A stretch of 64,000 nt of DNA from Paenarthrobacter sp. A20 (GTDB lineage Bacteria > Actinomycetota > Actinomycetes > Actinomycetales > Micrococcaceae). The position numbers were made by a program, and so were the translations under genes. The stretch covers positions 4,588,001-4,652,000 of the forward strand of contig NZ_JALJWH010000001.1 of the NCBI RefSeq assembly GCF_024168825.1, read 5' to 3'. Below are positions 5,935-38,498 of this stretch, one piece after another. Under the pieces are notes generated by a model that was not told the DNA's origin, did no database searches, and worked only from the letters and a program-made list of their open reading frames with translations. Numbering within the stretch: position 1 is the stretch's first letter; each line of letters starts with the position of its first letter.

Positions 5935-7077
5935 ATGACTACAGCAGCTAATCCGTCCGTTGGACTGGTCGGTTGGCGTGGCATGGTCGGCTCCGTCCTG
6001 ATGCACCGCATGCAGGAAGAGAACGACTTCGCCAACATCAACCCGGTATTTTTCTCCACCTCGAACGCAGGAGGTGCCGCCCCTTCCTTCGCTGATGGGG
6101 CAGGCAAGCTCGAGGACGCGTTCGATATTGAGACCCTGGCCAAGCTGCCGATTATTGTCACCGCCCAGGGCGGCGACTACACCAAGCAGGTCCACGGCGA
6201 ACTGCGCAACCGTGGCTGGGACGGCCTCTGGATTGACGCCGCCTCCACCTTGCGCATGAATGACGACTCGATCATCGTGCTGGACCCCATCAACCGCGAC
6301 GTCATCGATGCCGGCCTCTCCGGCGGAGTGAAGGACTTCATCGGCGGAAACTGTACGGTCTCCTGCATGCTCATGGGCCTCGGTGGCCTGTTCAAGAACA
6401 ACCTCGTGGAGTGGGGCACCTCCATGACGTACCAGGCTGCCTCCGGTGGCGGCGCACGCCACATGCGCGAGCTCCTGAACCAGTTCGGCACCCTCAACAA
6501 CGAGGTCAGCAGCGAACTGGAGGATCCCGCGTCGGCGATCCTGGAAATCGACCACAAGGTCCTCGCTGCCCAGCGCAACGGTGTTGACGCCACACAGTTC
6601 GGCGTTCCGCTGGCCGGGTCCCTGATTCCGTGGATCGATGCCGACCTCGGCAACGGCCAGTCCAAGGAAGAGTGGAAAGCCGGCGTCGAAACCAACAAGA
6701 TCCTCGGCACCGGCAACGGCACTGCCGGCAAGGACCACATCGCCATGGACGGACTGTGTGTCCGCATTGGCGCCATGCGCTCCCACTCCCAGGCCCTCAC
6801 GCTCAAGCTGCGCGAAGACCTGTCCGTGACGGAGATCGAGAACCTCCTGGCCAAGGACAACGAGTGGGCCAAGGTTGTTCCCAACACCAAGGAAGCCTCC
6901 ATGGCCGACCTGACCCCCGTGGCTGCATCCGGCACGCTGGACATCCCCGTGGGACGTATCCGCAAGCTCGAAATGGGTCCGGAATACATCAGTGCCTTCA
7001 CTGTTGGCGACCAGCTTCTGTGGGGTGCCGCCGAGCCACTGCGCCGCATGCTCAACATTGTCACCGGCAAGCTCTAG
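5935..7077 (+). CDS. asd: Aspartate-semialdehyde dehydrogenase, E. coli type
   Basis: 380 residues; reduces aspartyl phosphate to aspartate semialdehyde with NADPH, the branch point to lysine/diaminopimelate, methionine and threonine. The N-terminal nucleotide site is [18 protein letters not shown], the catalytic cysteine C140 sits in [12 protein letters not shown], and [28 protein letters not shown] and [19 protein letters not shown] follow. Many of these stretches match the gammaproteobacterial enzyme closely, whereas the usual actinobacterial Asd is a shorter, different branch normally next to lysC. Here it stands alone, followed by a terminator. Function is secure; transfer is an inference. 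Confidence 0.96.
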
Positions 7078-7090
7078 CCATTCTTGTTCG

Positions 7091-7136
7091 AAAACCCGCT
7101 GCTCCGTTGCCGCCCAGCCACGGAGCGGCGGGTTTT
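7091..7136 (+). terminator. Rho-independent terminator after asd
   Basis: Stem AAAACCCGC (7091-7099) with CTCCGT (7102-7107) pairs with ACGGAG (7120-7125) and GCGGGTTTT (7128-7136), ending in a T run. It lies 14 bases past the asd stop. The A/T-flanked stem can also stop transcription arriving from the minus-strand gene ending at 7171. Confidence 0.85.
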
Positions 7137-7170
7137 CCTCGTTTTGGTGGGCATTTCAGCGGGCCGGTTT

Positions 7171-8304
7171 TCAGCTGTTCATGAACTTCACGTACGCCCT
7201 GCCCTGAGCTTGGAACGAACGCTCAGCTGCCGTGCCCAGCTGACCGGCGAACGGCTCCGGAACCACACTCACCGCTTTCCCCGTGACCGGCCTGGCCCAC
7301 GTTCCCACCACTTCACCCCCGGACACCATGATCCGTTTGAACACACCGTTCTTTCCCGGGACAACACGCTCCGCGAACTCAGGGGCCAGGACCAGGCTCC
7401 GGTCCTGGTAACCGAGCAGGAACTCGTCGAACCCGGGAAGTGCCAGCAACGAGCGTGAGCCGGGGACGCCGTCGTCGAGCATTGCTGCTGTCTCCGACGA
7501 CAACCAATAATTGGTTCCGCCGAGAGGCAACTCGACCAATTGGTCCTGCAGCGTCTTGAGGGCTGCGCGTGCCTCGATGAGCGGCACTTGGCTCCACCAC
7601 GAGAAATCCTTGATGGTCGCAGGACCGTGGCTCCGGAGGTAGCGGTACAGCAGCTCCGCAATGCCCTCCTCGCGCCCGAGGTCCCGCGACTCCGGAATCC
7701 AGTCCTCGAACGGCACGAACACTTGCTGTACGCCCGCTTTACCGTTTGACGCAGCCATAGGTCCCTGCACCAGCCACGCCCGCTGGCAAAGACTCCCGAG
7801 CAAGTGGATTCCCCGCTGCGCCTTGGTGATCTGGCCCGCGTCCTCGAACGCCTGGAAGAGTTGCTCCCGGGTTGCGCCGTGGGCGCCCCCGGCTGACGTG
7901 AGGACCTCCATGGTTTTGAAGGCAATGTCGCGGCAATGGCTGATGTCGTCCGGCGTGATCGCCAGTTCACGGTGGCGGCCAGCCACCATATTCATGAGGC
8001 GGTCGCTGGTGATGCCCAGGATCCAGCGGAGATCTTCCGGTGCGAGTAGGTGGAGCGTCCCGCGCATGGGCCACGAACGGACCACAGACCCGGCATCGAG
8101 GGCTGCCCTGACGTCCGAGGCGCGGCTGCCGGGCACACGCTGGCCGACCGCCCAGAGGGCCGAGCCCAGGTCCTGGGCCTGCATGGCCGTCATCCAACGG
8201 ACCGCGCCAGCAACGGTTGGAAAGCCGCCGCCCAACAGTCCTTGGCTGGCCAGGCGCAGTCGGCCCATAACTCGCGGAGTTGGATCGGTGTGGGCTGAAG
8301 GCAT
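7171..8304 (-). CDS. Winged-helix DNA-binding protein, AlkZ/YcaQ-like (HTH_42)
   Basis: 377 residues of the HTH_42 family, whose studied members are DNA glycosylases for interstrand crosslinks and bulky alkyl adducts (AlkZ) or crosslinks (E. coli YcaQ/AlkX). The family's catalytic motif near the N-terminus appears here as MQAQDLGSALWAVGQR, with Q42 and Q44 in the Q-x-Q arrangement of AlkZ-type enzymes rather than the Q-x-D of YcaQ. Further family features are VRSWPMRGTLHLLAPEDLRW and a C-terminal half with LLPGFDEFLLGY-like sequence (LALPGFDEFLLGYQDRS). It diverges from the membrane-protein gene at 8390. Glycosylase activity is an inference from the motif. Confidence 0.8.
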   Translation of the reverse strand: MPSAHTDPTPRVMGRLRLASQGLLGGGFPTVAGAVRWMTAMQAQDLGSALWAVGQRVPGSRASDVRAALDAGSVVRSWPMRGTLHLLAPEDLRWILGITSDRLMNMVAGRHRELAITPDDISHCRDIAFKTMEVLTSAGGAHGATREQLFQAFEDAGQITKAQRGIHLLGSLCQRAWLVQGPMAASNGKAGVQQVFVPFEDWIPESRDLGREEGIAELLYRYLRSHGPATIKDFSWWSQVPLIEARAALKTLQDQLVELPLGGTNYWLSSETAAMLDDGVPGSRSLLALPGFDEFLLGYQDRSLVLAPEFAERVVPGKNGVFKRIMVSGGEVVGTWARPVTGKAVSVVPEPFAGQLGTAAERSFQAQGRAYVKFMNS

Positions 8305-8389
8305 GCTTCATCCTAAAAGGGCCAACGTGCACAGGGAACATTGCCGCCTCTCCCAGCCCTCACCCAGCAGCGGATCCTACGATGAATCC

Positions 8390-8869
8390 ATGCTTTTTGG
8401 CGATCTTGCTCCGTTCGTGCGGCCGATGAGCCGGTGGTTGGCTACCGCCGGCTGGTTCTGCACGCTCGTCGGGCTTGGCGCCGGACTGATCGTGGCAGTG
8501 GGGACGGGCGTGAGCCTTTCCTCATCGATGCAAGCCATCCAGACCGTGAGTCTGGTGGCGACCGCCGCAGCAGCGCTCCTCATCGGTACGGCAGCAGCGA
8601 CCCAGCCAGTAGCAGACCGCGACGACGATGCCCCCGAGCCATGGTTCTACCCGACCGCCGCCGCGCAGGTCCGCAGCTTCCTGCTGGGAGCCCTCGTCAT
8701 GTTGCTGGGCTTGGTGGGGTTCGCAACTGCCGGGCTTTTCATGCCCAGCGGGCCATCGCCGCAGAGTATCGCCTTCAGCCAGATCTTCCTGTTGGGCTCG
8801 GTCAGCTGCGGGCTCACGTTCCTGCTGCTCAACAAGATCCTGCCGATCGCAGAACGTCGTACCCGCTAG
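8390..8869 (+). CDS. Four-helix membrane protein, unknown function
   Basis: 159 residues with four hydrophobic segments (about 14-38, 45-68, 93-117, 128-149) and short polar connections, one containing DRDDDAPEPWFYP. Start ATG 8390; a nearby out-of-frame ATG at 8382 is not used. No upstream ribosome site is obvious, so the transcript may be leaderless. The gene is divergent from the AlkZ-like gene and convergent with murB, so it is probably monocistronic. I do not recognise a family. Confidence 0.7.
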   Translation: MLFGDLAPFVRPMSRWLATAGWFCTLVGLGAGLIVAVGTGVSLSSSMQAIQTVSLVATAAAALLIGTAAATQPVADRDDDAPEPWFYPTAAAQVRSFLLGALVMLLGLVGFATAGLFMPSGPSPQSIAFSQIFLLGSVSCGLTFLLLNKILPIAERRTR

Positions 8870-8890
8870 GAGAGGTCCCGGGCGGACACG

Positions 8891-9961
8891 CTAGAGACTG
8901 ACACCGATCAATAACGGTTCCGGGTGCAACTCAATACCAAAACGTTCGACGACGCCGGCCTGCACCTCACGTGCGATGGCAACCATGTCCGCAGCCGACG
9001 CAGAACCCCGGTTGGTTATGGCCAGTGTGTGCTTGGTGGACAGGGAGGCCCTGCCACCCGAAACGCTGGACGTCTCGAGTCCGAAGCCCTTTCCGAATCC
9101 TGCCTGGTCGATCAGCCACGCAGCGGAGAGCTTCACCATTCCATCCGTTCCCGCGGGGAACTGTGGAGCGTTCTCCGGTAACTCCGCGGCATGCCCGGCG
9201 GCCACGATCGGGTTGGTGAAGAAGGAACCGGTCGAATAGGTGTCCCGATCCGCAGCGTCCAAGACCATGCCCTTGGATGCTCGAAGCCGCAGGACTTCCC
9301 TCCGGACATCGTTGGAGTAGGCGCGTTTTCCGGCCTCAACGCCCAGCACCCTGGCCAGTTCGGCGTAGCGGATGGGGGCGCTCATCCGTCCCAGCGGCAA
9401 CTGGAACTCGACCGTCAGCACCACATAGCGGGGCGAGCCCTCCACCGTGGTCTGCTTCAGGATCGAATCGCGGTACCCGAACGTGAGCTCGGAGTTGGTG
9501 AAGGTCTGCACCGCATTGCGTTCGCGGTCCCAGGTGCGCACAGCGGCAATGGTTTGTGAAACGTCCGCACCATAGGCGCCCACGTTCTGTACTGGAGTGG
9601 CTCCCGTGGCTCCCGGAATTCCGGATAATGCCTCCAACCCGGACCAAGCGTGCAGCACGGAGTGTTCCACCAGTGCATCCCAGTTGTGGCCCGCCTGCAC
9701 CACCACCGAAACGCCGCCGCAGCTGTCCTCCGAGTTCACGGTGAAGCCTTCTGACGCGATCTTCAGGACGGTGCCGGGGTAGCCTTCGTCGGAAATCAGG
9801 AGGTTGGAGCCGCCTCCGATGATCAGGAGTTTCTCGTCGGCAGCGTCGGCGGACCTGACGGCGTCGATAATTTCAGCCTCGGTGCGGGCCTCAACATAGT
9901 TCCCTGCGGGGCCGCCGACGGCGGCTGTGGTCAAGTCGGAAAGCAGTGTTTGGGTCACCAT
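8891..9961 (-). CDS. murB: UDP-N-acetylenolpyruvoylglucosamine reductase
   Basis: 356 residues; FAD- and NADPH-dependent reduction of the enolpyruvyl group to give UDP-N-acetylmuramate, a committed step of cytoplasmic peptidoglycan synthesis. FAD-binding landmarks are LLIIGGGSNLLISDEG, LEALSGIPGATGATPVQNVG and QNVGAYGADV. The active-site region YSTGSFFTNPIV contains the serine that acts as proton donor in MurB, and LIDQAGFGKGFG follows. The start lies 6 bases after the stop of the MFS gene, so murB is the last gene of a minus-strand operon that also carries two MaoC-fold dehydratases. The coupling of cell-wall and acyl-chain genes is conserved in some actinobacteria but its logic here is inferred. 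Confidence 0.95.
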   Translation of the reverse strand: MVTQTLLSDLTTAAVGGPAGNYVEARTEAEIIDAVRSADAADEKLLIIGGGSNLLISDEGYPGTVLKIASEGFTVNSEDSCGGVSVVVQAGHNWDALVEHSVLHAWSGLEALSGIPGATGATPVQNVGAYGADVSQTIAAVRTWDRERNAVQTFTNSELTFGYRDSILKQTTVEGSPRYVVLTVEFQLPLGRMSAPIRYAELARVLGVEAGKRAYSNDVRREVLRLRASKGMVLDAADRDTYSTGSFFTNPIVAAGHAAELPENAPQFPAGTDGMVKLSAAWLIDQAGFGKGFGLETSSVSGGRASLSTKHTLAITNRGSASAADMVAIAREVQAGVVERFGIELHPEPLLIGVSL

Positions 9962-32709: not shown

Positions 32710-33384
32710 TTAAGGATCAAAACGGTAGCCCATGCCTGCTTCCGTGTGCAGATGGCGCGGCTCCGCCGGATCCCGCTCCAGCTTCCGCCGCAGCTGGGCA
32801 ATGTACACGCGAAGGTACTGGGTTTCCTTGGCATAGGCCTGTCCCCAGACCTGGGTGAGAATCTGCTGCTGGCTCACCAGTTTCCCCTTGTTCCGGACCA
32901 ACAGTTCCAGGATGTTCCATTCCGTGGGCGTCAACCTGACTTCCGAGCCATCCTTGACAATCCTCTTGCCGGCCAGGTCCACCATGAAGTCGGCAGTGGC
33001 CAGGGTTGGTTCCTCATGTTCGGTGACGACACGGCGGGAGGCGACCCGAAGCCGGGCAAGCAGCTCATCCAAACCGAAAGGCTTGGTCACATAGTCGTCC
33101 GCACCGGCGTCGAGCGCTTCCACTTTGTCTTCCGACGCGTGCCGGGCGGACAGCACGATGATGGGCATGCTGCTCCAGCCACGGATGCGGCGGATGATCT
33201 CCACGCCGTCCATGTCCGGCAGCCCAAGGTCCAGGACCACGATCTCCACCGGCTGCTTGGCAGCGGCCTGGAGGGCCTCGGCCCCCGTGCCCACCGACAG
33301 CGCCTGGTAGCCGTGCGCCTGAAGGGTGATCTGCATGGCGCGGGCAATCCGGGCCTCGTCCTCGACGATCAGAACCAGCGTCAT
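32710..33384 (-). CDS. kdpE: OmpR-family response regulator (KdpE-like)
   Basis: 224 residues. Receiver domain with acidic pocket VEDE and phosphoacceptor D52 in VVLDLGLPDMDG, signalling Ser/Thr region IIVLSARHASEDK and invariant Lys in DYVTKPFG. A winged-helix OmpR/PhoB domain follows (RLTPTEWNILELLVRNKGKL, YLRVYIAQLRRKLE, TEAGMGYRF). Closest by eye to KdpE. It overlaps the kinase stop by four bases, so kinase and regulator are translationally coupled. The kdpFABC potassium pump operon it would normally control is not in the window. Confidence 0.87.
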   Translation of the reverse strand: MTLVLIVEDEARIARAMQITLQAHGYQALSVGTGAEALQAAAKQPVEIVVLDLGLPDMDGVEIIRRIRGWSSMPIIVLSARHASEDKVEALDAGADDYVTKPFGLDELLARLRVASRRVVTEHEEPTLATADFMVDLAGKRIVKDGSEVRLTPTEWNILELLVRNKGKLVSQQQILTQVWGQAYAKETQYLRVYIAQLRRKLERDPAEPRHLHTEAGMGYRFDP

Positions 33385-34907
33385 TGCGCGTCACCTGTCC
33401 ACAGCGGCAGGGTGACCACCATGGTCAGGCCACCACCCGGCGTCGGCTCGGCGGCGAGCCTGCCGCCCATGGCCTCGCTGAACCCTTTAGCCACTGCCAG
33501 TCCAAGGCCGATGCCACCGCCGGAGCCGATTCCGCCCGCCGCGGTCTGTGACGGCGAATCACCAAAGCGTTGGAAAGGCTGGAACATGGTGAGGACTTCA
33601 TCGTGGCCCATCCCCCTGCCGTGATCCACGATCCTCAATTCACTGGCGGGCCGGTCGCCCAACGTGATGCCGGCCCCGGCCCGGGCAGTCAGGACCACAT
33701 CAGAGTCAGGCGCGTACTTCACGGCGTTCTCAACGATGTTGGCCACCACGCGCTCCAGCATGCCGGCATCAGCCTGCACCGGAGGCAGGTTGGCCGGAAG
33801 TTCATTGCGGAGGTGCTCCGGTGGAACACCCCGCAACGCTTGGGGCAGCACCTCGGCCCACACGATGCCGGTCAGCAACGGGTTGACCGCATCGGCCGTA
33901 ATCCTGGACATGTCCAGAAGATTGTCCACCAAGTGATCCAGGCGGTCTGCGTACTCCTCAATGGTTTCCAGCAGTTCCCGCTCGACCTCCGGCGGAAAGC
34001 TCACGTCCTCCTGGCGCAGGCTGCTCACCGCGAGCTTGATGCCCGCCAACGGGGTCCGCAGGTCATGCGACACAGCGCGCAGGATGGACGTCCGCATTTT
34101 GTTGCCCTCCGACAGCCGCAGGTTGTCCCGGCGGCTCTTGACCAACTGCTGGCGTTCCCGCACGGCCACGACGAAGGCCCCGAAGGCAGCCAGCAGACGC
34201 TGGCGTTGAGGCGATAACGGACCGCCGCGCAGCAGCAGCGTGTAATGCGGATCGACGACGGCGGCGTGGTCGGCGGCGGCATGGGTCACCGGCGGATTGT
34301 GGCCGGCGCTCGCCAGCACCTGCCACGAGGGAGCCGCACCTGGCATTGCCGGCCCACCCGGTCCCGCGGAGCCCAGCAACGTCACCGCTTCCATGCCCAG
34401 ATTGCTGCGGACCTTCTCAAGGAACGTTTCCAGGCTGCCGTCCGAACTCAGGATTCTCAGGGCCAACTCGCTTAAGGCCGTGGCCTCGGCTCCGGAGCGA
34501 GCTGCCTCCTGGGCGCGCCGGCTGGCCAGGCCGACTGCCAGTGCCACGCCGCAGGCCACAGCAAGGAAGACCACAAGTGTGAACAACGTGGTGGGGTCGG
34601 CGATGGAGAGCGAGCCGACAGGATCTGCCGAGAAATAGTTAAGGAGGAAGCTTCCCAGCACGGCGGCCACCACCGCCGGCCACAAACCACCGATCGCGGC
34701 GACGGCAACCGCCACCGCCAGTTGCAGCAGCATGGTGATCGCGAAGTTACGGAAATCGAGGACCGTCACCAGAAGTTCGACGGCGGGCGGCAGCAAAAGC
34801 GCCAGGACCAAACCGGTGACCACCCGGCCTTGGCCGATGCCGCGAACCGGCGGCAGCCGCAGCAGCACGCCGTCGTCGCCGTTGCCATGTGCCTCTGGTG
34901 CCGCCAT
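33381..34907 (-). CDS. kdpD: KdpD-like sensor histidine kinase lacking the N-terminal KdpD domain
   Basis: 508 residues from ATG 34907 with AAGGA upstream. Four membrane helices (about 20-125) form a DUF4118-like module, then a linker/GAF-like region, HisKA with phospho-His in LRAVSHDLRTPLAGIK, and HATPase with VANIVENAVKYA, IVDHGRGMG, FQRFGDS and GGGIGLGLAVAKG. Standard KdpD is about 850-900 residues because of an N-terminal KdpD/USP region with an ATP-binding site; that region is absent, so the sensing mode must differ. Partner of the overlapping kdpE-like gene. Confidence 0.85.
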   Translation of the reverse strand: MAAPEAHGNGDDGVLLRLPPVRGIGQGRVVTGLVLALLLPPAVELLVTVLDFRNFAITMLLQLAVAVAVAAIGGLWPAVVAAVLGSFLLNYFSADPVGSLSIADPTTLFTLVVFLAVACGVALAVGLASRRAQEAARSGAEATALSELALRILSSDGSLETFLEKVRSNLGMEAVTLLGSAGPGGPAMPGAAPSWQVLASAGHNPPVTHAAADHAAVVDPHYTLLLRGGPLSPQRQRLLAAFGAFVVAVRERQQLVKSRRDNLRLSEGNKMRTSILRAVSHDLRTPLAGIKLAVSSLRQEDVSFPPEVERELLETIEEYADRLDHLVDNLLDMSRITADAVNPLLTGIVWAEVLPQALRGVPPEHLRNELPANLPPVQADAGMLERVVANIVENAVKYAPDSDVVLTARAGAGITLGDRPASELRIVDHGRGMGHDEVLTMFQPFQRFGDSPSQTAAGGIGSGGGIGLGLAVAKGFSEAMGGRLAAEPTPGGGLTMVVTLPLWTGDAQ

Positions 34908-35059
34908 GGCTACATCCTTACATGGTTGGCCCGCTGGGTAGTTCTCCCCATTTACGCCCGTCACCGGTGCCGACGCCGCCTGCAAGGACTAGGCTTGCTC
35001 TGAGCATTCTGGTCCGGCGTGGCGCCGGACACTTCAACGGTCTATCCAGGGGGATACAC

Positions 35060-35767
35060 ATGGGCCCGAAAGACAGCCCTGACGCAGCCGGCAACGACGG
35101 CGGCAGCAGGGACAACAACGCCGACTTCGGAGCGGGCAACAATCCGCCCAAGCCCCCACCTTGGCAGGTGCCAAAGCCCGAACTCCACCCCGAGCTGTTC
35201 ACGCCTGTCGAGGGCGGCCAGGAGCCGGCGAAAAGTACAGGCAAGGGCAAGAAGCGTCCGGTGCCTGCCGGTGCACCCCAGGCCGGGAACGGCGCGCCGC
35301 AGCCCGGCCAACCCCTCCCCGTCGTGGACCCGTTCGCCAAGGAACGCGAGCGAGGAGCAGCTGAGGCAGCGAAAAAGAAGAAGCGTTCCCAGCGCCGCAC
35401 CGTCGTCGTGGGCTTGGGCGTGACTGCCCTGCTGGCTGGAACCATTACCGCGATCGTTGCCAGCAATGAGCAGGAAGCGGACTACGCGCAGGTCTGTTTC
35501 AACGAGGAAACCGGCGAACGCGTTGACGACAACGAGTGCAACAACAGCAGTTCGGCCGGCCGCAGCTCCGCGGTCTATGCCTGGTACTTCTACTCCCGGG
35601 GAGCCAGTGTGCCCGCGGTGGGGCAAAACCGCAGCTCCTACCCGAGCTACACCAAGAACGTGCCTACGGGAGCAAAATCCTCTACCGGCTACAGCACCAA
35701 GGGCGGCACTGTCAGCCGCGGCGGCTTCGGCAGCAGCTCCAAAAGCGGCGGAAGCTCGGGAGGCTAG
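35060..35767 (+). CDS. YgiB-like (DUF1190-related) membrane-anchored protein
   Basis: 235 residues from ATG 35060 with AGGGGG 7 bases upstream. A Pro/Gly-rich N-terminal tail and basic KKKKRSQRR lead to one membrane helix (about 113-134, VVVGLGVTALLAGTITAIVA). Outside lie two cysteines in YAQVCFNEETGERVDDNEC and a Ser/Gly/Tyr-rich tail containing GGTVSRGGFGSS. E. coli YgiB ends with a nearly identical VTRGGFG block and has an oxidised-Cys N-part, and its gene is also followed by ygiC. The gene pair here is therefore a divergent YgiB-YgiC. The match rests on that motif and on context; function is unknown. Confidence 0.75.
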   Translation: MGPKDSPDAAGNDGGSRDNNADFGAGNNPPKPPPWQVPKPELHPELFTPVEGGQEPAKSTGKGKKRPVPAGAPQAGNGAPQPGQPLPVVDPFAKERERGAAEAAKKKKRSQRRTVVVGLGVTALLAGTITAIVASNEQEADYAQVCFNEETGERVDDNECNNSSSAGRSSAVYAWYFYSRGASVPAVGQNRSSYPSYTKNVPTGAKSSTGYSTKGGTVSRGGFGSSSKSGGSSGG

Positions 35768-35769
35768 GC

Positions 35770-36975
35770 GTGCGTCGACTCTCCTCCGTGCCCAGGCCGG
35801 ACTGGAAGCAAAAGATCGAAGAACAGGGCCTGGTATTTTCCACCACCACCATGCCCAATGGCCGCAAAATCGAATACTGGAACGAATCGGCCTATTACGA
35901 ATTCACCATGGACGAGGTGGAAACCCTCGAGAAGACCGCCGAGGACATGCACATCATGTGCCTGGAGGCCGCGAAGTACCTGGCCACCGGAGCCATGGGC
36001 GATATCGGCATCGGGCAGCAGGCCCTTGAACTCGCTGGCGAGTCGCTGCTGGCTGCCGACATGGATATCTACGGCCGCTTCGATTTCATCTATGACGGCA
36101 AGGGCGGTCCGGCCAAGATGCTGGAGTACAACGCCGACACTCCCACCGGGCTCATCGAAGCCTCCGTTGCCCAGTGGTTCTGGCTCCAGGACGTTTTTCC
36201 GGACAAGGACCAGTGGAACGGGATCCATGAGGCCCTGATCCGGCAATGGAAGAAGCTGCAGTTCCGTACCGGCATGAGCACCCTGCACGTGGCCCACTCC
36301 GAAGCAGAGGAATCCGGCGAGGACTGGATGACAGCGGCCTACATGCGGGATGTCGCGAGCCAGGGTGGCTGGACCACCATCGGCATCAACATGTCCGACA
36401 TCGGCTGGGACCCCAACCTGAACCGGTTCGTGGACCTGGACAACTTCATGATCAGCACCATGTTCAAGCTGTACCCGTGGGAACTGATGATGAAGGAGCC
36501 CTTCGGGCACCGCCTCCTGCAGCGCGCCTACAACCCGCGCTGGGTTGAACCGGCGTGGAAGATGCTCCTGTCCAACAAGGCACTGCTGGCCGCGCTGTGG
36601 CATCTCTACCCGGACCACCCGAACCTGTTGCCTGCATATCTTGGCGACCCGGGACCCCTGAAGGAATGGGTGGCCAAGCCGCTGCATGGGCGCGAAGGCG
36701 ACAACATCCGCATCCACGCCCCCGGCATCGAGATCCAGCAACCCGGCGGCTACGGCCGTGAAGGCTGGTGCTTCCAGCAGTACCACTCCCTCCCGGACTT
36801 CGACGGCAATCATCCCGTCCTGGGTCTGTGGGTGGTGGATGGCGAATCCGTCGGCTGTGGAATCCGCGAATCCGATGGCCCCATCACGGACTACTTCTGC
36901 CGCTTTGTACCCAACACCATTGACTCCCCCGCGCCTGTCGCGCCCACTGCTACTTCCTACGGAGCCGCACTATGA
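35770..36975 (+). CDS. Glutathionylspermidine synthase-like ATP-grasp protein (YgiC/YjfC family)
   Basis: 401 residues from GTG 35770, preceded by GGGAGG overlapping the upstream stop, 2 bases after the YgiB-like stop. Landmarks: YEFTMDEVETLEKTAEDMH, MGDIGIGQQALELAG, DFIYDGKGGPAKMLEYNADT, PTGLIEASVAQWFWLQD, and DGNHPVLGLWVVDGESVGCG near the C-terminus. The family joins a carboxylate to an amine using ATP; E. coli GspS makes glutathionylspermidine, while YgiC and YjfC lack the amidase half and have unknown substrates. Actinobacteria make no glutathione, so a different peptide or amino acid acceptor is likely. Confidence 0.85.
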   Translation: MRRLSSVPRPDWKQKIEEQGLVFSTTTMPNGRKIEYWNESAYYEFTMDEVETLEKTAEDMHIMCLEAAKYLATGAMGDIGIGQQALELAGESLLAADMDIYGRFDFIYDGKGGPAKMLEYNADTPTGLIEASVAQWFWLQDVFPDKDQWNGIHEALIRQWKKLQFRTGMSTLHVAHSEAEESGEDWMTAAYMRDVASQGGWTTIGINMSDIGWDPNLNRFVDLDNFMISTMFKLYPWELMMKEPFGHRLLQRAYNPRWVEPAWKMLLSNKALLAALWHLYPDHPNLLPAYLGDPGPLKEWVAKPLHGREGDNIRIHAPGIEIQQPGGYGREGWCFQQYHSLPDFDGNHPVLGLWVVDGESVGCGIRESDGPITDYFCRFVPNTIDSPAPVAPTATSYGAAL

Positions 36976-38498
36976 GCACTGAAACCTCGACGCCGGGTGG
37001 CGGCCAAGCGGGCGGCGACCGTACCGCCGTCGTACCTCCCAAAGGCCTCCACGCCGGGATCCTGGACCTTGGCGACTCCGTCATGTTGGGCCTGGCATCC
37101 ACCGCACCCGTCTATTCGTTGGCCGCGACCCTGGGGCTCATTGTTGCCGTCAACGGCAACTACACGCCGCTGATCCTGATCCTTGGCTTCATCCCGGTCC
37201 TGTTCATCGCCTACGCCTTCCGTGAACTCAACAGCGCAATGCCGGACTGCGGCACCACGTTCTTCTGGGCCCGCAAGGCCTTCGGCCCCTGGGCCGGCTG
37301 GCTGGGCGGCTGGGGTGTGGCATTGGCTGGCATCGTGGTCCTGGCCAACCTGGCGCAAATTGCGGGCAAGTACCTTTGGCTGCTGATCGGCGATGGTTCC
37401 CTGGCTGAGAACACATGGCTGGTGACGGCAACCGGCGTGCTGTTCATCGTGTTCATGACGTACGTGAACCACCGTGGCATCCGGCTGGGTGAGCACGTCC
37501 AGCGCACGCTGACATACATCCAGTACATTTCGCTGGGCATCTTTGCTGTGGCCATCATCGTCCGGATCGCCGGCGGAGCACCCGAAGGCCAGGCCTTCGA
37601 CTTCGAATGGTTCAACCCTGCCGGCGCGTTTGCCGATCCCGGTGCTGTGGTCCACGGTGTCTTGCTGGCGCTGTTCATTTACTGGGGCTGGGACACGTGC
37701 CTGGCGCTCAACGAGGAAACAGAGAACCCGGCCAAGACTCCCGGTCGCGGCGCGGTCATCTCAGCCTCCGTCCTGGTGGCGATCTACGTTTCCGTTGCCC
37801 TGCTGGTGATGATGTACGCCACGATTGGTACCGACGGCATCGGCCTGGGCAACGAAGCCAACCAGGACGACGTCTTCCTGGCCATGAAGGACGTAGTGCT
37901 GGGCCCATGGGGCTGGCTGATCATTGTGGCTGTGCTGGCATCGGTCCTGTCATCGACGCAAACCACCATTCTTCCCACGGCACGCGGGACATTGTCCATG
38001 GGCGTGCACGGTGCGCTTCCGGCGCGGTTCGGTAAGGTCCACGAACGGTTCATGACCCCGGGCTTCTCCACGCAGGTCATGGGTGCGGTGGCCGTTGTGT
38101 ACTACGTGGCCATGAGCTTCCTCAGCGAAAACCTGCTGTCCGACTCCATCAGCGCCATCAGCTTGTTCATTGCGTTCTACTACGCCCTGACCGGGTTCTC
38201 CTGCGTGTGGTTCTTCCGCTCCACGCTCCGGGACTCCGCCCGGAACCTGTGGTTCCGTGGCATCCTGCCGTTCCTGGGTGCGCTGTCCCTGACGGCTGCG
38301 TTCTTCATCTCGGCCGTCCAAATGTGGGACCCGGCCTACGGGGACACCCGGATCTTCGGCATCGGCGGGGCTTTTGTCAGTGGCGTGCTGCTGTTGGCCC
38401 TGGGCGTTGTGCTGGCTGTGGTGTGCCGCTTCGCGCCGTCAACCCGTGGCTACTTCACAGGTGAGCGTGCCCAGGTTGGCGTAGTAAGCGGCGAGTAG
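36972..38498 (+). CDS. APC-superfamily amino acid/polyamine permease
   Basis: 508 residues with about 12 hydrophobic helices. The first helix region GILDLGDSVMLGLASTAPVYS and later GTTFFWARKAFGPWAGWLGGW, WDTCLALNEETENPAKTPGRG are characteristic of APC transporters. ATGA overlap with the YgiC-like gene makes co-translation near certain. The partnership suggests it supplies, or removes, the amine or amino acid that the ATP-grasp enzyme uses. Substrate specificity cannot be read from sequence. Confidence 0.92.
   Translation: MSTETSTPGGGQAGGDRTAVVPPKGLHAGILDLGDSVMLGLASTAPVYSLAATLGLIVAVNGNYTPLILILGFIPVLFIAYAFRELNSAMPDCGTTFFWARKAFGPWAGWLGGWGVALAGIVVLANLAQIAGKYLWLLIGDGSLAENTWLVTATGVLFIVFMTYVNHRGIRLGEHVQRTLTYIQYISLGIFAVAIIVRIAGGAPEGQAFDFEWFNPAGAFADPGAVVHGVLLALFIYWGWDTCLALNEETENPAKTPGRGAVISASVLVAIYVSVALLVMMYATIGTDGIGLGNEANQDDVFLAMKDVVLGPWGWLIIVAVLASVLSSTQTTILPTARGTLSMGVHGALPARFGKVHERFMTPGFSTQVMGAVAVVYYVAMSFLSENLLSDSISAISLFIAFYYALTGFSCVWFFRSTLRDSARNLWFRGILPFLGALSLTAAFFISAVQMWDPAYGDTRIFGIGGAFVSGVLLLALGVVLAVVCRFAPSTRGYFTGERAQVGVVSGE

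What the first reader, a model, noticed from the sequence alone, without database searches (positions are those of the whole stretch)
35060..38498. A divergent YgiB-YgiC pair translationally coupled to an APC permease
The small anchored protein carries two cysteines outside the membrane and the C-terminal GGTVSRGGFG block that marks E. coli YgiB (DUF1190), and the next gene, 2 bases away, encodes a YgiC-type glutathionylspermidine-synthase-like ATP-grasp protein, exactly the E. coli gene order. In this actinobacterium the third gene is an amino acid/polyamine permease overlapping by ATGA. Family knowledge: the YgiC/YjfC group makes amide bonds with unknown substrates, and this lineage lacks glutathione. 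Inference: an uptake-ligation-envelope system using a non-glutathione peptide or amine.
Basis: partly seen in the sequence, partly recalled or inferred. Interest (0 to 1): 0.72.

Follow-up and report, generated by a model that had tools for sequence, protein, structure and literature searches.

The report
Actinobacterial peptide-amine ligase operon with permease
A soil actinobacterium carries a version of the E. coli ygiB-ygiC gene pair, an enzyme thought to join amines to peptide ends next to a small membrane-anchored protein whose tail usually ends in two glycines, here tied to a transporter, and the pattern suggests that the small protein's tail is what the enzyme modifies.

Summary
YgiC (35770-36975) is a GSP_synth-family enzyme (E = 1e-144), closest to E. 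coli YgiC/YjfC, which RefSeq names peptide--spermidine ligases; it keeps the ATP/Mg residues of GspS but not its glutathione-pocket residues. The small protein matches DUF1190 only below cut-off; profile alignment covers 17 columns around TVSRGGFG, so DUF1190 membership is not met. It belongs to a coherent actinobacterial family: anchor, two invariant cysteines, RGGFG, Gly/Ser tail. Of 297 genomes of the order, 33 have YgiC and 31 the partner, all within the 33. Of 61 genus genomes, 43 have YgiC, and exactly those have the adjacent APC permease.

New observation: partners end in Gly-Gly in 74 of 78 proteobacterial and 61 of 75 actinobacterial cases (the rest GS or SS), against 1 of 458 and 4 of 284 background ORFs; Shine-Dalgarno overlap does not explain this. 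Best reading, inferred: YgiC joins an amine to the partner's C-terminal carboxylate. No spermidine synthase was found in the 61 genus genomes, so the amine is open. Known kind of module; new variant.

The parts
35060..35767 (+). ygiB-like gene: 235-aa membrane-anchored partner protein (N-terminal Pro/Lys-rich part, one hydrophobic segment, C-terminal part inferred to be outside)
   Evidence: family alignment A3
35402..35467 (+). hydrophobic anchor segment, residues 115-136 (many other actinobacterial members have a lipobox-like cysteine here instead)
   Evidence: sequence read; comparison
35495..35539 (+). two-cysteine core from C146 to C160; both cysteines invariant in the 35 aligned members
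35717..35731 (+). RGGFG motif, shared with E. coli YgiB (YjfM has RGGYG)
35759..35764 (+). C-terminal Gly-Gly codons (GGA GGC), proposed acceptor carboxylate; here they also form a Shine-Dalgarno-like GGAGG for ygiC
35770..36975 (+). ygiC: GspS-type ATP-grasp ligase, 401 aa, GTG start; R103, D105, E119, N121, K270, K303 and acidic E184/D185 present
36972..38498 (+). APC-family permease, 508 aa, ATGA overlap with ygiC; lies where DUF350 lies in many other actinobacterial loci

Best explanation
The locus is an actinobacterial version of the E. coli ygiB-ygiC module. YgiC (cytoplasmic) uses ATP to phosphorylate a C-terminal carboxylate and joins it to an amine by an amide bond (chemistry carried over from E. 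coli YgiC/YjfC and GspS). The most likely peptide is the flexible tail of its own partner, the small anchored protein, whose last residues are usually Gly-Gly, modified before the tail is exported, so that the envelope side displays an amine-capped (polyamine-like) tail. The APC permease most likely imports the amine, or the amino acid it comes from. Shown here: the operon, its conservation, the strict pairing, the catalytic residues, the conserved Gly-Gly end. Inferred: acceptor identity, amine identity, timing before export, permease substrate and direction, biological purpose.
For: YgiC is 39% identical to E. coli YgiC. GspS ATP/Mg residues R316, D318, E330, N332, K498 are kept in all 97 actinobacterial rows of the alignment (about 17 rows repeat others) and K533 in 96 plus one gap; E391 is kept in 97 and E392 is D or E in 97; S335, C338, T441, T446, D610 differ in the window protein, as in YgiC/YjfC (residue roles recalled). 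RefSeq names both E. coli enzymes peptide--spermidine ligase. Pairing: partner profile hits in 31 of 297 order genomes, all within the 33 with YgiC. C-terminal Gly-Gly: 74 of 78 proteobacterial; 30 of 30 genus and 31 of 45 other actinobacterial, the other 14 GS or SS (rule blind to the last six residues). Background ORFs: 1 of 458 proteobacterial and 4 of 284 actinobacterial. In the proteobacterial set GG occurs in at most 6% at each of the 11 neighbouring offsets. Not simply a Shine-Dalgarno by-product: 13 of 74 proteobacterial and 5 of 31 non-genus actinobacterial GG ends use GGA GGN, and GG persists in 9 cases whose stop lies more than 22 nt before ygiC. GspS acts on the Gly carboxylate of glutathione (established knowledge); PMC10979984 states that GspS and glutathione synthetase condense amines at a peptide C-terminus (passages). 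Permease in 43 of 43 YgiC genomes and 0 of 18 others in the genus and beside three plasmid copies. No spermidine synthase match in 61 genus genomes; no AdoMet decarboxylase or nspC match in the own genome.
Against: No direct evidence that YgiC touches its partner. 14 of 45 non-genus actinobacterial partners end GS or SS, and the actinobacterial tails are G/S-rich (GG at other offsets up to 36% there and 57% in the genus), so the end is less striking than in Proteobacteria. 16 of 30 genus GG ends coincide with a Shine-Dalgarno-like GGAGG; five of the nine far-apart cases come from one genus (g95). The C-terminus is inferred to be outside, so modification would have to precede export. The permease is not generally needed: of 16 YgiC-bearing order genomes outside the genus with no spermidine synthase match, two have an APC-like gene beside ygiC, and one of these (L169) has no Pfam match at E 0.001. 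The permease is 22% identical to PuuP and has no meaningful match to PotE. G198 (L158) has YgiC without a recognised partner.
Confidence: 0.45

Rival explanations
1. YgiC makes a free small peptide-polyamine conjugate; the anchored partner senses, binds or delivers it at the membrane, and the permease moves the amine or the product.
For: GspS and trypanothione synthetase make free conjugates (established knowledge). The cited 2023 title for E. coli YgiC/YjfC says peptide-spermidine ligase. PMC11237479 calls DUF1190 a metal-chelating lipoprotein (section 19 read).
Against: Does not explain why the partner's last two residues are kept while the tail before them varies, nor the strict pairing.
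Confidence: 0.3
2. An envelope-stress or ion-homeostasis module in which the Gly-rich partner is structural, Gly-Gly is a docking or stability signal, and the ligase acts on other proteins.
For: In many non-enteric proteobacterial loci the pair sits with PspA, K+ channel, DUF2491 and DUF350 genes; in Actinobacteria DUF350 or K+ channel genes lie beside several copies.
Against: No DUF350 beside the pair in 30 of 30 genus loci and no PspA or DUF2491 hit in the fetched genus loci; kdpDE lies beside the operon only in 6 of 27 genus loci (L061-L065, L067).
Confidence: 0.15
3. The C-terminal Gly-Gly is a by-product of the Shine-Dalgarno of ygiC overlapping the last codons of the partner gene.
For: In the window GGA GGC spells GGAGG shortly before GTG; 16 of 30 genus GG ends use GGA GGN.
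Against: 61 of 74 proteobacterial and 26 of 31 non-genus actinobacterial GG ends use other codons, and GG persists where the genes are more than 22 nt apart (5 actinobacterial cases of one genus, 4 proteobacterial).
Confidence: 0.05

Closest known systems
Escherichia coli YgiB-YgiC (downstream of tolC)
   Same: Gene order and spacing of a few bases, 39% identity of YgiC, same catalytic residues, anchored partner with TVxRGGFG and C-terminal Gly-Gly.
   Different: The window's partner does not pass any DUF1190 threshold tested; it has a TM-like anchor with a long N-terminal part; an APC permease follows.
Escherichia coli YjfL-YjfM-YjfC (DUF350-DUF1190-ligase)
   Same: Ligase of the same branch (219 bits); partner directly upstream, with RGGYG and a Gly-Gly end.
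   Different: No DUF350 beside the pair in the genus; the permease lies in the slot that DUF350 has in many other actinobacterial loci.
PspA/CesT operons with a GspS-like ATP-grasp ligase, Ravi et al. 2024 (PMC11237479)
   Same: ATP-grasp ligase with a small lipoprotein, DUF350 and K+ channel (section 19 read); some actinobacterial copies also carry DUF350 or a K+ channel.
   Different: No PspA or DUF2491 hit in the fetched genus loci. Section 19 and the passages, all that I saw, do not mention the actinobacterial partner family or the permease.
Glutathionylspermidine synthetase/amidase (GspSA)
   Same: Same ATP-grasp family and ATP/Mg residues.
   Different: No amidase domain found; glutathione-pocket positions differ. 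PMC12506659 (passage) states that E. coli YgiC lacks the GspS activity.

Membership tests
GSP_synth (Pfam PF03738), YgiC/YjfC branch | Full-length profile match above the curated cut-off | tested here: met
   482.9 bits against cut-off 29.3, profile 1-371 of 371
GSP_synth (Pfam PF03738), YgiC/YjfC branch | Closer to YgiC/YjfC than to GspS or trypanothione synthetase | tested here: met
   phmmer 273 and 219 bits to YgiC and YjfC, 104 bits to trypanothione synthetase, 63 bits to GspSA
GSP_synth (Pfam PF03738), YgiC/YjfC branch | ATP/Mg catalytic residues retained | tested here: met
   R103, D105, E119, N121, K270, K303; residue roles recalled from the GspSA literature
GSP_synth (Pfam PF03738), YgiC/YjfC branch | Peptide-spermidine ligase activity | not testable with these tools
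   reported for the E. coli enzymes only; primary paper not held
DUF1190 (Pfam PF06693; NCBIfam PRK11653) | Profile match above the curated cut-off | tested here: not met
   12.3 bits against 22; 7 of 35 family members match at E up to 1, best 0.018; PRK11653 in 3 of 35, best E 0.044
DUF1190 (Pfam PF06693; NCBIfam PRK11653) | Alignable along the domain | tested here: not met
   hhalign of 76 actinobacterial rows against 80 proteobacterial rows: 17 columns around TVSRGGFG, probability 92.6%, E 4.5e-7 for this single comparison
DUF1190 (Pfam PF06693; NCBIfam PRK11653) | Anchored protein directly upstream of a YgiC-type ligase, with RGGFG and Gly-Gly end (context, not a formal definition) | tested here: met
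Glutathionylspermidine synthetase | Glutathione-pocket residues and amidase domain | tested here: not met
   T, G, L, L, R at positions 335, 338, 441, 446, 610; 401 aa with no amidase family in the Pfam scan
APC amino acid/polyamine permease superfamily | AA_permease_2 profile match | tested here: met
   107.8 bits against 27
Polyamine-specific APC transporters (PuuP, PotE) | Closer to known polyamine carriers than to other APC proteins | tested here: not met
   22% to PuuP, no meaningful match to PotE, 38-42% to seven genus paralogues (an eighth row was a wrong-frame ORF; PlaP fetched but not compared)

The most novel reading that the evidence does not exclude
YgiC-type ligases across Proteobacteria and Actinobacteria are dedicated protein C-terminus amine ligases: each caps the Gly-Gly tail of its own genetically linked anchored partner with a polyamine or other amine before export, giving envelope proteins an amide-linked cationic end, a bacterial protein-tail modification comparable in logic to Gly-Gly conjugation but with a small amine as the second partner.
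Probability: 0.4. Interest if true: 0.8.

Novelty: new variant of a known kind. Interest (0 to 1): 0.55.

Why it matters
As far as I could find, the role of ygiB-ygiC and yjfM-yjfC is not settled even in E. coli, although the enzymes were reported to ligate peptides to spermidine. Partner proteins of two phyla that align nowhere else keep RGGFG and, mostly, a Gly-Gly C-terminus beside the same enzyme, which names a concrete candidate substrate and makes the question testable in laboratory E. coli. The actinobacterial operon adds a permease that is kept, carried on plasmids and lost together with the ligase, in a genus with no detected spermidine synthase, which is a handle on the amine.

Tried and rejected
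DUF1190 as a true family match for the small protein: rejected by thresholds and by the 17-column limit. kdpDE as part of the system: rejected, since it lies beside the operon in only 6 of 27 genus loci with YgiC (L061-L065, L067). The permease as a general replacement for spermidine synthesis: weakened. Of 27 YgiC-bearing order genomes outside the genus, one search gives a strong spermidine synthase match in one (G109), weak matches (E 1e-6 to 1e-8) in ten, and none in 16; all matches including the weak ones are above Pfam's cut-off, and that the weak ones are other methyltransferases is my reading. Only two of the 27 (G245/L149 and G224/L169, both without a match) have an APC-like gene beside ygiC, and some of these loci end soon after the pair. 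A permease tree placed window and plasmid copies near each other with only one well-supported branch, left L149 and L169 unresolved, and contained one wrong-frame outlier (par7, L298). The Shine-Dalgarno explanation of Gly-Gly was tested and largely rejected.

Faulty steps replaced: and so in the actinobacterial part, the choice of partner ORFs required a GG, GS or SS ending, which is circular; one search repeats it with the last six residues hidden (75 of 80 loci kept; L158, L159, L163, L168, L179 gave no ORF by that rule; L159 and L163 are cut by contig ends; L168 and L179 had GG-ending ORFs under the old rule). The 45 non-genus loci include the plasmid copy L193 of a genus genome. The proteobacterial set kept 78 of 80 loci (L260 and L263 gave none), is the best 80 of at least 591 matches by similarity to E. 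coli YgiC, and is mostly Enterobacterales. The iterated DUF350 profile drifted onto other frames and was discarded; one search replaces it. The partner profile was built in large part from the genomes it then found, so only the absence of partner-only genomes is informative, and at most 14 first-look candidates were scored per genome.

Not run: structure prediction and fold search, because the machine was busy at each of nine attempts. The primary paper on YgiC/YjfC (Biochemistry 2023, 62:899), the 2012 comparison paper and the 2009 amidoligase survey are not held; whether they already propose the partner tail as substrate is unknown. Paper searches; the listings of 36 and 76 were capped at 20 and 15 rows.
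Full report
What is there. The window holds a tight three-gene operon: a 235-residue anchored protein (35060-35767), two bases, a 401-residue GspS-type ATP-grasp enzyme starting with GTG (35770-36975), and a 508-residue APC permease whose ATG overlaps the enzyme's stop (36972-38498). Upstream and divergent lie a KdpD-like kinase and a KdpE-like regulator; downstream a GT87 gene on the other strand. Next to these I read MOSC, DEAD-box and acyl-CoA dehydrogenase genes from the sequence; these labels were not scanned.

The enzyme. It matches Pfam GSP_synth over its full length (482.9 bits). In the PDB it is nearest to E. coli YgiC (7uk8, 273 bits) and YjfC (7uk6, 219 bits), then trypanothione synthetase (104 bits) and GspSA (63 bits). 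Identity to E. coli YgiC is 39%. Mapped on GspSA, R316, D318, E330, N332 and K498 are present in all 97 actinobacterial rows, K533 in 96 with one gap; E391 is invariant and E392 is D or E; positions 335, 338, 441, 446 and 610 differ in the window protein, as in YgiC and YjfC (about 17 rows are repeats; residue roles are recalled). So it should activate a carboxylate and use an amine, but not glutathione. RefSeq K-12 names YgiC and YjfC peptide--spermidine ligase. The 2023 paper behind this is known to me only as a cited title and through the words 'peptidylpolyamine synthetases' in PMC12568646 (passages).

The small protein. DUF1190 scores 12.3 bits against a cut-off of 22. Of 35 family members 7 match DUF1190 weakly, best E 0.018. 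Profile-profile comparison of 76 actinobacterial with 80 proteobacterial rows aligns 17 columns around TVSRGGFG (probability 92.6%, single-comparison E 4.5e-7): the shared word is not noise, but nothing else aligns. The actinobacterial proteins form one family: an anchor (a lipobox-like cysteine in many, a TM-like segment in this genus), two cysteines invariant in 35 of 35, a WYY-type aromatic stretch in most, RGGFG, and a short Gly/Ser tail. The plasmid homologues I translated are labelled 'tRNA-dihydrouridine synthase' in the record, which their sequence does not support.

Pairing. YgiC-type enzymes occur in 33 of 297 sampled genomes of the order and 25 of 396 of the phylum. A profile of the partner family hits 31 of the 297, all within the 33. 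The two without are G091, whose contig ends at the gene, and G198. In G260 the hit lies on another contig than ygiC, whose own contig ends just upstream of it. No sampled genome has the partner without the enzyme; the profile was built largely from the positive genomes, so that absence is the informative part, with at most 14 candidates scored per genome. Of 80 fetched actinobacterial loci with YgiC, 75 gave a partner ORF ending within 460 nt of the ygiC start by a rule that ignores the last six residues.

Permease. Of 61 genus genomes 43 have YgiC. In 42 of these an orthologous permease (79% identity or more; in G070 split over two contigs) lies next to it, and in G030 it is present in frameshifted pieces. 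None of the other 18 has it; they show only paralogues near 40% or, in G003 and G009, remnants. In those two, deletions with different breakpoints join the first part of the partner gene to the last part of the permease gene, with YgiC gone. Further copies lie on plasmids of Pseudarthrobacter sp. BIM B-2242, Arthrobacter sp. zg-Y1110 and A. caoxuetaonis, each with ygiC followed by an APC permease. In other actinobacteria DUF350 lies beside the pair in 20 of 49 non-genus loci, in 18 of these directly downstream of ygiC, against 0 of 30 genus loci. An APC gene stands beside ygiC in two other families: L149 (Pfam-supported) and L169 (29% identity to the window permease but no Pfam match at E 0.001). 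The permease is not close to PuuP or PotE, so its substrate is open.

The C-terminus. E. coli YgiB ends SMGG and YjfM ends HWGG. Of 78 proteobacterial partners 74 end GG, 3 GS, 1 SS. Of 30 genus partners all end GG; of 45 other actinobacterial partners 31 end GG, 11 GS, 3 SS. Stop-to-stop ORFs of at least 200 residues from the same loci, partners left out, end GG in 4 of 284 (actinobacterial) and 1 of 458 (proteobacterial). In Proteobacteria the neighbouring offsets carry GG in at most 6%; in the Gly-rich actinobacterial tails they carry it in up to 36%, and in the genus up to 57%, so the proteobacterial signal is the stronger one. The sequences are related and unevenly sampled, so the counts are not independent. 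Overlap with the ribosome-binding site of ygiC could produce GG; 16 of 30 genus cases are spelled GGA GGN, but only 5 of 31 other actinobacterial and 13 of 74 proteobacterial ones are, and GG is kept in nine cases whose stop is more than 22 nt from ygiC, five of them from one genus. Protein-level constraint is therefore likely.

Mechanism. GspS-type enzymes phosphorylate a C-terminal (Gly) carboxylate and attach an amine; PMC10979984 (passages) states this for GspS and glutathione synthetase. The partner offers a flexible tail with a mostly fixed Gly-Gly end and is encoded with the enzyme in a strict pair. I therefore think it most likely that YgiC caps this tail with an amine before export. 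Which amine is unknown. The genus shows no spermidine synthase (0 of 61 at E 1e-5, control positive in 10 of 14), and the own genome shows no AdoMet decarboxylase or nspC, so spermidine, if used, would have to be imported or made by a route not tested, or another amine is used. The permease would fit an importer, but most other YgiC genomes of the order without a spermidine synthase match have no APC gene beside ygiC.

Known and new. The proteobacterial module (ligase, DUF1190, DUF350, K+ channel, DUF2491, PspA) is described in PMC11237479 (passages and section 19). In the search listings I saw no description of the actinobacterial partner family, the permease operon or the Gly-Gly end, but the key papers are not held and some listings were capped, so this is no claim of priority. 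I rate it a new variant of a known kind.

Noticed in passing
L080:7231-7950 and L081:7716-8123 (genus genomes G003, G009): Two natural deletions with different breakpoints have each left the start of the partner gene joined in frame to the end of the permease gene, with YgiC gone.
   Followed up: partly
L278:5501-5998, L279:5368-5874 (same label at L281:5376-5879, not translated): Plasmid YgiB-like proteins are annotated as tRNA-dihydrouridine synthase, apparently a wrong name.
   Followed up: partly
L079 (G050): 7069-9892, minus strand: Actinobacterial gene order K+ channel, DUF350, partner lipoprotein, YgiC, resembling the proteobacterial yjf-type module.
   Followed up: partly
L173, L188, L191: A spermidine-synthase-like gene lies within about 6.6 kb of the ygiC start in three non-genus actinobacterial loci.
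   Followed up: no
L158 (G198): A YgiC-type gene (39% identity to the window protein) without a recognised partner upstream.
   Followed up: no
window 32710-34985: A KdpE-like regulator and a kinase with DUF4118, HisKA and HATPase_c domains, divergent from the operon; the Pfam scan lists no KdpD N-terminal domain for the kinase. Beside the operon in 6 of 27 genus loci.
   Followed up: partly
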